From NCBI GenBank assembly GCA_019358835.1, contig JAHHIH010000007.1, positions 1 through 64,000 on the forward strand: a stretch of DNA of 64,000 nucleotides, written 5' to 3'. This document shows positions 132 to 2,783 of this stretch, in pieces. Below the pieces are notes generated by a model. It was not told the origin of the DNA. It worked only from the letters and a program-made list of their open reading frames with translations, and did no database searches. The DNA comes from Tildeniella torsiva UHER 1998/13D (GTDB taxonomy: Bacteria > Cyanobacteriota > Cyanobacteriia > Phormidesmidales > Phormidesmidaceae). Within the stretch, counting starts at the first letter, position 1, and each line of letters opens with the position of its first letter. The position numbers and the translations under genes are program-made.

Positions 132-1086
132 GCTGTGGCCATGTAGGTTAGGACGCGGCTTGCTTGAGGACGGCTTCGATAGCCGTGCGTAAGCCGTCGG
201 TATGGGGAAGGTGTTTGCGAATCCGGCTTTTCAACCACCCCCAGCACTTTTCAATACGGTTGAGGTCTGGGGAATAGGGTGGGAGGTAAACAACCTGACA
301 GCCTGCGGCCTCAATCAGCTGAACAATCCGGCCACCGTGGTGAAAGGTGGCATTATCGAGAATCACGCCATCACCCGGATGCAAGGCGGGAATCAAGCAG
401 GTCTCAAGCCGTAGTTCAAAGACCGTCCGGTTGCAGGCCCCAACGACTGTAAACGGGGCAATCAATTGATGCCCAGGGTATCCGGCGATCATATTCACGC
501 GCCCTTGCCGCCGTCCCGACTTGAGGTCATAGCACCGCTCGCCAGCAGGCGAGTAGCCAAACCCATAATTGTCTCGCTCATCCATCCCAGACTCATCGAC
601 GTAGACCCAATGAGGTGCTTGGGGGTCAGCGACTTGAGCTACAAACGCGCTCCGTTTTGTGTCATCGCGCTGGCGGTAGCCGTAGGTCTTTTTTTTCGCG
701 TCCAGTCAATCCGCTTCAGCGCGCGTGAGATCGTCCGTCGGCTGACATCGCTGGGCCAAAGCTCGGCCATCTCGGCCTGGGTTTGGGAGCAATGCTGCTC
801 AGCAAAGGCTCGAAACGCTTCCCAGTTCTGGATCTTCCCCTGAGCAGTAGACACCGCCCTGACGGTTGGTTCAAGGCAACCGGTCGCCGCTTTGCGCTTC
901 AGCCACAAGTCGATGGTGTTACGGCTGATTTGAAACAGCGCACTGGCTTCACTCTTCTTCAACCCATCGAGTTCTATCGCATCGATGACCTTCTGACGCA
1001 GATCAAGGCTATAGGGTTTGGCCATGTCACTCGCACACAATGAGACTCCCTCATTTAGTCTATGTCCTAATCAACTTGGCCATAGG
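132..1086 (-). mobile_element. IS630-family insertion sequence, about 955 bp, complete
   Basis: Imperfect terminal inverted repeats bound the element. The left end reads GCTGTGGCCATGTAGGTTAG from 132 and the right end, read inward on the minus strand, reads CCTATGGCCAAGTTGATTAG from 1086. Both continue into GGAC. Both ends are flanked by TA (130-131 and 1087-1088), the target duplication expected for the IS630/Tc1-mariner superfamily. The interior is filled by one transposase gene in two overlapping frames on the minus strand, and the transposase stop codon (148-150) lies inside the left inverted repeat. Size, TA target and DDE transposase all fit an intact, possibly active copy. Confidence 0.85.
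148..1025 (-). CDS. IS630-family DDE transposase, two frames joined by a -1 frameshift
   Basis: The first frame (about 1025 to 639) starts at MAKPYSLDLRQKVIDAI and holds the N-terminal helix-turn-helix DNA-binding domain. The second frame ends at 148 and carries the catalytic core: D in WVYVDESGMDE, D in GVILDNATFHH and E in LNRIEKCWGWLK, which is the DDE triad. The frames meet at a run of eight A residues on the coding strand (complement of 689-696). A -1 slip there turns the frame-one reading RKKRPTAT into KKKTYGYRQRDD, which is the expected continuation to the first catalytic Asp. Such frameshifting is known in IS630 elements. The position fits a programmed slip rather than decay, but a homopolymer indel is not excluded. 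A start at 1040 is possible but less typical. Confidence 0.85.
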
Positions 1087-2345: not shown

Positions 2346-2374
2346 TTGACAGTCACAGGATAAACAGTAACAAT
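2346..2374 (+). promoter_or_regulatory. Predicted sigma-70-type promoter of the glutamine-riboswitch/DUF4278 unit
   Basis: A perfect -35 box TTGACA (2346-2351) is followed after 17 nt by AACAAT (2369-2374), a 4/6 match to TATAAT. Transcription would begin near 2381, just before the riboswitch aptamer. That spacing is what makes the call credible. Confidence 0.5.
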
Positions 2375-2385
2375 GAATACAGAAA

Positions 2386-2448
2386 CAAATCGTTCATCTC
2401 TCTCACAAGAGACGGAAGTAGAGCACTAGCTCGAAGGAACGCGCCTCT
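2386..2448 (+). promoter_or_regulatory. Glutamine riboswitch (glnA / Downstream-peptide class)
   Basis: The segment carries the conserved blocks of the glnA/Downstream-peptide RNA motif in order: ATCGTTCATCTC, GACGGAAGTAG and CGAAGGAACGCG. A three-way junction can be drawn. P1 is CGTTC (2391-2395) with GAACG (2437-2441), P2 is TCTC/GAGA closing an ACAA loop (about 2399-2412), and P3 is GAGC/GCTC (2421-2432). This class is known to bind L-glutamine and in cyanobacteria lies upstream of glnA, the gifB-type inhibitor gene or short ORFs. Here it precedes a 56-codon ORF. The nucleotides CGCCTCT (2442-2448) just 3' of P1 can pair with AGAGGCG (2474-2480), which overlaps the Shine-Dalgarno, so ligand-dependent control of translation is inferred. 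Confidence 0.85.
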
Positions 2449-2484
2449 GTTTACCCACCTTCATTTATTAAGGAGAGGCGAAAG

Positions 2485-2655
2485 ATGTCCTTGAAGTATC
2501 GCGGCGTTGATTACGAACCGGCTACTGCTCAAGTAACCATATCTGAAGAAGTTATTGGTCGCTATCGCGGTGCTGTTGCCACTCGCCACGTGGCACCCCA
2601 GGCTAAAGCTGATCATCCCCAGGGTCTCAAGTACCGCGGAGCGGCTGTTCGATAG
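2485..2655 (+). CDS. DUF4278-family small protein under riboswitch control
   Basis: A 56-residue ORF starting MSLKYRGVDYEP and ending LKYRGAAVR. The KYRG-type motif at both ends is characteristic of DUF4278, a short cyanobacterial family of unknown function. AGGAG (2471-2475) lies 9 nt before the ATG. The protein has no cysteine, membrane segment or signal peptide and is basic. A glutamine-riboswitch-type leader directly upstream and a terminator 100 nt downstream make this a monocistronic unit. By analogy with glutamine-induced small inhibitors of glutamine synthetase it may act in nitrogen assimilation, but that is inference because DUF4278 is not the IF17/GifB family. Confidence 0.85.
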   Translation: MSLKYRGVDYEPATAQVTISEEVIGRYRGAVATRHVAPQAKADHPQGLKYRGAAVR

Positions 2656-2756
2656 ACTGAGTTTGCCCGGTTAGGCTAAGAGGTAGCTTCGTCCGCAAGG
2701 TCGGAGCTACTGCTCATTTCTAAGGGTAGGAGTTTGCCTGAGTCGTTATTTTACTG

Positions 2757-2783
2757 AAGCACCTCTGTGGGGGTGCTTTTTTG
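2757..2783 (+). terminator. Rho-independent terminator after the DUF4278 gene
   Basis: AAGCACC (2757-2763) pairs with GGTGCTT across a short loop and runs directly into a six-T tract. A second inverted repeat, GTAGCT...AGCTAC near 2683-2710, lies between the stop codon and this terminator and may stabilise the short mRNA. Confidence 0.85.

What the first reader, a model, noticed from the sequence alone, without database searches (positions are those of the whole stretch)
2346..2783. Glutamine riboswitch controlling a DUF4278 micro-protein as a self-contained unit
Promoter, glnA/Downstream-peptide-type aptamer, a 56-codon DUF4278 gene and a terminator lie in 440 bp with nothing else. The aptamer blocks (CGTTCATC, GACGGAAGTAG, GAAGGAACGCG) are directly visible. 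That the class binds glutamine and precedes short ORFs in cyanobacteria is established. The role of DUF4278 is not, so this locus suggests a nitrogen-status-responsive small protein, perhaps analogous to glutamine synthetase inhibitors.
Basis: partly seen in the sequence, partly recalled or inferred. Interest (0 to 1): 0.8.

Follow-up and report, generated by a model that had tools for sequence, protein, structure and literature searches.

The report
Nitrogen-surplus switch for a tiny protein
A cyanobacterial gene for a 56-residue protein sits behind an RNA sensor for glutamine and a likely nitrogen-repressor site, so it should be made only when nitrogen is plentiful; the switch is of a known kind, but what the free small protein does is still open.

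Summary
Window 2389-2445 is a type-1 (glnA) glutamine riboswitch (RF01739, 57.9 bits; gathering score 35), followed by a 56-codon DUF4278 gene (PF14105, 47.8 bits) and a terminator. It is not the Downstream-peptide type. The pairing is known: DUF4278 is the N-terminal half of the glutamine synthetase (GS) inhibitor IF17. Added here: (1) an exact GTAN8TAC (NtcA-type) palindrome covers the -10 box, so expression should need both low 2-oxoglutarate and high glutamine; 75 of 107 parsed cyanobacterial leaders carry one. (2) A Shine-Dalgarno-sequestering helix covaries across the wider set of leaders, and its first base is the C60-equivalent that glutamine binding captures. (3) The protein is under purifying selection and lies in a standalone-only clade, so it is not a decayed IF17. 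(4) The genome has five such units: two IF17-type genes, its only detected PirA (fused behind DUF4278), this one, and a 38-residue membrane peptide. (5) Most genus members have a covarying 3'-UTR stem at this locus. Best reading: a doubly gated nitrogen-surplus gene whose free DUF4278 protein acts at the GS/PII node. Regulation is supported by sequence only; the protein's action is inferred. New member of a known kind.

The parts
2346..2374 (+). Sigma-70-type promoter: -35 TTGACA 2346-2351, 17-nt spacer, -10 AACAAT 2369-2374; transcription start inferred near 2381
   Evidence: consensus scan; start site inferred from spacing only
2367..2380 (.). NtcA-type palindrome GTA-N8-TAC over the -10 box, centred at about -7.5 from the inferred start, the value published for gifB
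   Evidence: -7.5 for gifB from PMC6316151
2389..2445 (+). Type-1 glutamine riboswitch aptamer (RF01739); P1 = 2391-2395 with 2437-2441; C2442 is the C60-equivalent
   Evidence: P1 pairs checked; C60 role from PMC11477058 section 7; numbering mapped by me
2442..2448 (+). Anti-Shine-Dalgarno arm CGCCUCU, directly after P1
2470..2480 (+). Shine-Dalgarno region; AGAGGCG 2474-2480 pairs with 2442-2448 (7 pairs)
2485..2655 (+). 56-codon standalone DUF4278 gene, three YRG motifs, no IF7 or PirA tail
2663..2725 (+). Structured 3'-UTR element of the genus: block TTGCCCGGTTAG, then a 14-pair covarying stem 2680-2693 / 2700-2713
2756..2782 (+). Intrinsic terminator: 10-pair stem 2756-2779 with T-run
   Evidence: not listed by the consensus scan

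Best explanation
A nitrogen-surplus expression unit with two gates. Gate 1, transcription: NtcA, active when 2-oxoglutarate is high (nitrogen poor), sits on the -10 box and blocks the promoter. The product is the free form of the DUF4278 module that elsewhere heads IF17 (GS inhibitor) and a PirA form (PII-binding regulator of arginine synthesis). It most likely acts as a small protein-binding regulator at the GS/PII node during nitrogen excess, by contacting GS or a partner shared with the DUF4278 fusions. Shown here by sequence: aptamer, NtcA-type site, hairpin pairing with covariation in the wider set, purifying selection, dedicated clade, shared regulatory layout with IF17 and PirA genes. 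Inferred: glutamine binding, NtcA binding, the switch itself, and the protein's target.
For: Aptamer over threshold and present at 30 of 30 fetched ortholog loci. GTAN8TAC in 75 of 107 cyanobacterial leaders against a mean of 1.5 (max 7) in 100 shuffle sets; 38 of 44 standalone-DUF4278 leaders; 74 of the 75 start at -20 to -34 from P1 (many leaders are close relatives). Class-wide sample: 56 of 79, no shuffle control there. Helix: over 102 distinct leaders incl. proteobacterial ones, mean stem 5.67 against 5.10 when arms are swapped between leaders (max 5.32 of 300 swaps); the exact partner stands opposite CGCCT in 58 of 60, CATCT in 4 of 4, CACCT in 3 of 6. C60 linchpin: PMC11477058 section 7. 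Coding: pN<pS in 300 of 300 pairs among 25 equal-length orthologs, means 0.16 and 0.59. Standalone-only clade of 38 rows, SH-aLRT 97. Own genome: units for two IF17-type proteins, DUF4278-PirA and this one. IF17's N-terminal part adds stability and seems to improve GS inactivation (PMC6316151 section 9).
Against: No binding or expression data. On cyanobacterial leaders alone the arm-swap test shows no excess (5.79 against 5.76); the signal needs the more diverged leaders, and the exact partner stands opposite CGCCC in 0 of 8 and CGCTT in 1 of 3. Energy model: the free minimum-energy fold does not form P1, and forcing P1 costs 1.5 kcal/mol; with P1 formed and C2442 withheld the fold loses 2.2 kcal/mol but the ribosome site stays paired (mean unpaired 0.12), rising to 0.35 only if 2443 is withheld too. 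The leader is not unusually stable (z -1.5). GTAN8TAC alone is not rare in the window (6 found, 4.2 expected). The protein lacks the IF7-like part; in IF7 three arginines are essential for GS binding. Many DUF4278 genes lack the riboswitch: 63 of 150 listed have one. Standalone forms occur in gammaproteobacteria with no GS-like ORF seen beside them in the stretches held (by eye).
Confidence: 0.55

Rival explanations
1. Decoy or stability model: DUF4278 is a nitrogen-dependent stability tag on IF17 and PirA fusions. The free copy occupies the same protease or adaptor, or pairs with the fusions, and so protects or tunes them rather than acting on an enzyme.
For: IF17's N-terminal part contributes to its stability, and IF17 is degraded when ammonium is removed (PMC6316151 section 9). 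The same module heads two unrelated effectors in this genome and 12 PirA-tailed and 26 IF7-tailed proteins in 79 class-sample loci, behind the same type of riboswitch.
Against: Standalone DUF4278 is also found in marine picocyanobacteria, from which PirA and the IFs are reported absent (PMC8092223; PMC6316151), and in SAR86/Porticoccaceae, where a decoy for IF17 or PirA would have no client known to me.
Confidence: 0.25
2. The RNA is a main product: the 3'-UTR element is a locus-specific regulatory RNA (seed TTGCCCGGTTAG plus stem) made under the same double gate, with the protein secondary.
For: In 18 aligned orthologs the stem changes sequence but stays paired: 96.4% of cells against 83.5% shuffled; 39 double-change cells against 12.3; covariation 0.664 against 0.370, each reached by 0 of 500 shuffles; pairs with a change on both sides 10 against 7.2, reached by 10 of 500. 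One copy in each of the 18 genomes that have it.
Against: The 18 were picked because they hold CCCGGTTAG, so those letters are invariant by choice, and the stem was read off these same sequences. Found in 18 of 23 genus genomes and 0 of 37 others searched; the 18 are the genomes the model was built from. The protein is far wider and under strong selection. No target was identified.
Confidence: 0.1
3. Remnant: a truncated IF17 that lost its GS-binding half and is drifting.
For: Some other standalones sit inside the mainly IF7-fused part of the tree (L102, L272, L289-L291), so loss of the tail seems to happen.
Against: The window protein lies in a standalone-only clade of 38 rows, SH-aLRT 97, all 56-58 aa; 300 of 300 pairs pN<pS.
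Confidence: 0.05

Closest known systems
gifB/IF17 with its type-1 glutamine riboswitch (Synechocystis PCC 6803; Klahn et al. 2018, not held, as reported in PMC6316151)
   Same: Type-1 aptamer, NtcA-type site at about -7.5, DUF4278 at the N terminus of the product
   Different: No IF7-like half; 56 aa only; extra structured 3' UTR
PMM1846-type standalone DUF4278 of Prochlorococcus (PMC6316151)
   Same: Small standalone DUF4278 protein behind a glutamine riboswitch, with an NtcA motif; function proposed but untested
   Different: By the review the picocyanobacterial riboswitch is type 2 (Downstream-peptide); this one is type 1, in a genome that also has IF17-type proteins and a PirA fusion
[quoted passage not shown]
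   Same: NtcA-repressed small nitrogen regulator; in this genome the one PirA match is fused behind DUF4278 and a type-1 riboswitch with an NtcA-type site
   Different: The window protein has no PirA part

Membership tests
Type-1 glutamine riboswitch (RF01739) | Covariance-model score over Rfam gathering threshold | tested here: met
   57.9 bits against 35
Type-1 glutamine riboswitch (RF01739) | P1 closed by C1:G59, with C60 and the junction GG present | tested here: met
   P1 2391-2395/2437-2441 all standard pairs; C2442 and the GG of CGGAAGUAG are in the sequence; the ligand-dependent pair itself is inferred
Type-1 glutamine riboswitch (RF01739) | Binds L-glutamine and switches translation on | not testable with these tools
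   Needs in-line probing and a reporter
Type-2 (Downstream-peptide) glutamine riboswitch | Hit to the Downstream-peptide family | tested here: not met
   No such hit at gathering threshold in the window
DUF4278 (PF14105) | Score over curated cut-off across the domain | tested here: met
   47.8 bits against 25.3, profile 1-56 of 57
GS inactivating factor IF17/IF7 | IF7-like C-terminal region | tested here: not met
   No NCBIfam hit at E 1 or below; the frame closes at 2655, four residues after the third YRG
PirA | NF050139 match | tested here: not met
   No NCBIfam hit; the genome's single match is on contig C30
NtcA-repressed promoter | GTAN8TAC overlapping the core promoter | tested here: met
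   2367-2380 exact; NtcA binding and repression not tested

The most novel reading that the evidence does not exclude
DUF4278 is a portable nitrogen-surplus control module. Cyanobacteria place the same NtcA-plus-glutamine-riboswitch gate and the same three-YRG module in front of different effectors (IF7 for GS, PirA for PII) and also make the module alone, as here, to set the level or lifetime of the whole set through a common binding partner, itself backed by a structured 3'-UTR RNA in this genus.
Probability: 0.25. Interest if true: 0.75.

Novelty: new member of a known kind. Interest (0 to 1): 0.5.

Why it matters
The switch is established biology, so this locus mainly extends it. What makes it useful is that one genome shows the module free, fused to IF7-like tails and fused to PirA under one control layout, so the open question of what DUF4278 does can be tested by deleting the 56-aa gene and measuring GS activity, PII/NAGK control and turnover of the fusions. 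It also argues that PirA with an N-terminal extension, for which PMC8092223 could not exclude false annotation, is real.

Tried and rejected
Structure: AlphaFold2 with 39 sequences gave mean pLDDT 76.3 but pTM 0.35 (six strands, three hairpins with YRG at the turns); Foldseek against PDB gave nothing at E 0.001 or below (best E 5.1), and a sequence search of PDB chains had best E 1.3. No target follows from the fold.

Phage link: tblastn of the protein against 50,697 phage records gave no match; one scan of viral contigs with the SAR86 relative gave no relative.

Stop-codon readthrough into the 3'-UTR block: considered and rejected by my own reading. The block keeps its letters while its frame relative to the stop differs in L194, L201, L203 and L205, so it is conserved as RNA, not peptide.

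First 3'-UTR stem as a plain terminator: not favoured by eye; no strong T-run follows it in the window, while the stem at 2756-2779 has one.

Motif copies: TTTGCCCGGTTAG with up to one mismatch occurs 19 times in the genome (2 exact) against 9 for the reversed-pattern control; of ten loci fetched I saw the stem only at the window copy (by eye).

Outer pairing of the P1 3' strand with codons 2-4 in the ligand-free fold: the codons are TCCTTG in 18 of 28 parsed orthologs and variants in the rest, so it is not relied on.

An earlier NtcA count, 76 of 117, included some proteobacterial leaders and is replaced.

Klahn et al. 2018 (PMC6212724) is not held; statements about it come from PMC6316151. 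Its supplement may already list standalone type-1 genes like this one.

ORF picking in the census is rough: L253, L254 and L309 were mis-picked (DUF4278 follows), and L305/L307 have IF7-like tails by eye although counted as DUF4278 without tail.

Full report
Observation. RF01739 covers 2389-2445(+) with 57.9 bits. The 56-codon ORF 2485-2655 scores 47.8 bits with PF14105, DUF4278. A TTGACA/AACAAT promoter pair starts at 2346, and a 10-pair terminator stem lies at 2756-2779, although the consensus terminator scan did not list it. The class is type 1 (glnA); no Downstream-peptide hit reached threshold.

Known background. A review (PMC6316151; [quoted passage not shown] The primary paper (Klahn et al. 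2018) was not held. The word DUF4278 occurs in two papers of the library. So the general finding is not new; the role of the standalone protein is still open in what I could read.

Promoter. GTAACAATGAATAC at 2367-2380 is an exact GTAN8TAC palindrome over the -10 box. With a start inferred near 2381 its centre is at -7.5, the value the review gives for the repressing NtcA site of gifB. By itself the pattern is not rare (6 in the window, 4.2 expected), but its placement recurs. Of 180 unique riboswitch instances parsed, 114 were cyanobacterial, 109 had a start codon 20-70 nt after P1, and 107 had 60 nt upstream; 75 of these 107 carry the palindrome, against a mean of 1.5 and a maximum of 7 in 100 shuffle sets. 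For standalone DUF4278 it is 38 of 44, for DUF4278 fusions 26 of 30, but for IF7-only genes 2 of 10 and for other small proteins 8 of 22. Many of these leaders are close relatives. In the broader class sample it is 56 of 79, without a shuffle control. In this genome the sites of the C36, C38 and C30 units are exact; C19 is exact and C43 has one mismatch by my reading.

Translation switch. CGCCUCU 2442-2448 pairs with AGAGGCG 2474-2480 over the Shine-Dalgarno region. Across 102 distinct leaders including proteobacterial ones, the two arms of the same leader pair better than arms swapped between leaders: mean 5.67 against 5.10, the maximum of 300 swaps being 5.32. The exact partner of the first five bases is present for CGCCT in 58 of 60, CATCT in 4 of 4, CACCT in 3 of 6, CGCTT in 1 of 3 and CGCCC in 0 of 8. 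On the cyanobacterial leaders alone there is no excess, 5.79 against 5.76, because most share the same arms. PMC11477058 section 7 says that bound glutamine draws G23 into a linchpin pair with C60 at the base of P1. C60 maps to C2442, the first base of the anti-Shine-Dalgarno arm. This gives a direct competition, but a modest one in the energy model. The free fold (-29.4 kcal/mol) lacks P1; forcing P1 gives -27.9; withholding C2442 as well gives -25.7 and leaves the site paired (mean unpaired 0.12); withholding 2443 too raises this to 0.35. The switch is therefore plausible, not shown.

The protein. In 39 aligned DUF4278 sequences the first YRG is invariant, the third is at least 90% conserved, and so is the RG of the second. 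The model places each YRG at a beta-hairpin turn, with low global confidence (pTM 0.35). The gene is under purifying selection: 300 of 300 pairs among 25 equal-length orthologs (of 28 parsed) have pN<pS. The protein is matched in 25 of 26 genus genomes (table), with the riboswitch at all 30 loci checked. In a tree of 121 DUF4278 domains it falls in a clade of 38 standalone proteins, SH-aLRT 97. Standalone, IF7-fused and PirA-fused labels are strongly clustered, needing 7, 7 and 2 changes against 40.1, 38.0 and 18.0 shuffled. Only 60 columns support this tree, 64 of 118 inner branches are open, and near-copies add to the clustering. Rows without two YRG-like motifs, duplicate domains, proteins over 75 aa without a recognised tail, and proteobacterial proteins were not in it.

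The regulon. The genome has five RF01739 hits. Four precede DUF4278: C38 and C19 carry IF7-like tails (NF052599 94.3 bits, over its cut-off of 70, and 61.7, under it), C30 carries a PirA tail (NF050139 61.4 bits, over its cut-off of 50) and is the only PirA match in the genome, and C36 is the window gene. A third, weak IF7 match lies on C32 (25.3 bits, under cut-off) without a riboswitch hit. The fifth unit, C43, precedes a 38-aa single-helix peptide. In 60 class-sample genomes, 63 of 86 riboswitch matches (three of the 86 under the gathering score) have DUF4278 within 200 nt downstream, while 63 of the 150 DUF4278 matches used have a riboswitch; the DUF4278 list was cut by the tool. Of the 79 of 86 loci fetched (left out: the five of this genome and two that lie next to a fetched one), my profiles DUF4278+IF7, 22 DUF4278 without either tail, 12 DUF4278+PirA (all 12 with the NtcA-type palindrome), 2 IF7 alone and 17 other (with the mis-picks listed under Tried and rejected). 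PMC8092223 (passages) could not exclude that N-terminally extended PirA are false annotations; the shared riboswitch, NtcA-type site and DUF4278 head argue that such proteins are real. I did not test the two strains that paper names.

3' UTR. From the eighth base after the stop codon, 18 orthologs share TTGCCCGGTTAG and then a 14-pair stem. The 18 were chosen from 28 parsed orthologs because they hold CCCGGTTAG, so those nine letters are invariant by choice. The stem covaries: 96.4% of cells paired against 83.5% shuffled, 39 double-change cells against 12.3, covariation 0.664 against 0.370, each reached by 0 of 500 shuffles; pairs with a change on both sides 10 against 7.2, reached by 10 of 500. 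Related sequences can exceed such shuffles, and the stem was read from these sequences; sliding it by 1-3 columns drops pairing to 32-49%. A model built from the 18 finds one copy in each of 18 of 23 genus genomes, the same 18, and none in 37 others, and only 2663-2725 in the window. Its function is unknown.

Reading. I take the unit as an AND gate for nitrogen surplus, with transcription released when NtcA lets go and translation released by glutamine. The free DUF4278 protein most likely works at the GS/PII node. Whether it touches an enzyme or sets the stability of the DUF4278 fusions cannot be decided by sequence. Occurrence of the module in gammaproteobacteria (L093 30.2 bits, over cut-off; L062 22.8 bits, under it) argues for a function of its own.

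Noticed in passing
L004 (G000:C43:4986-5210); orthologs L160-L189: A 38-aa single-helix (by eye) membrane peptide follows the fifth glutamine riboswitch. It is matched in 34 of 57 relatives, with RF01739 over threshold at 16 of 30 fetched loci; similar peptides follow 8 of 79 class-sample riboswitches by eye. No Pfam or NCBIfam match.
   Followed up: partly
L076, L079, L084, L100, L104, L129, L292: A second family, by eye, of about 67-76 aa small hydrophobic proteins follows glutamine riboswitches in several cyanobacteria; no Pfam match over cut-off for the one tested (L100).
   Followed up: no
   Followed up: partly
L062:7396-7742, L093:4134-4364 and upstream: Porticoccaceae and SAR86 loci with tandem glutamine riboswitches before 56-60 aa triple-YRG proteins (PF14105 22.8 and 30.2 bits; cut-off 25.3).
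   Followed up: partly
L217 (G002): Three consecutive riboswitch-DUF4278 units in one relative, each with its own aptamer over threshold.
   Followed up: no
window 148-1040 (-): Transposase-like ORFs split over two frames near the tRNA at 1274-1344; read by eye, not searched.
   Followed up: no
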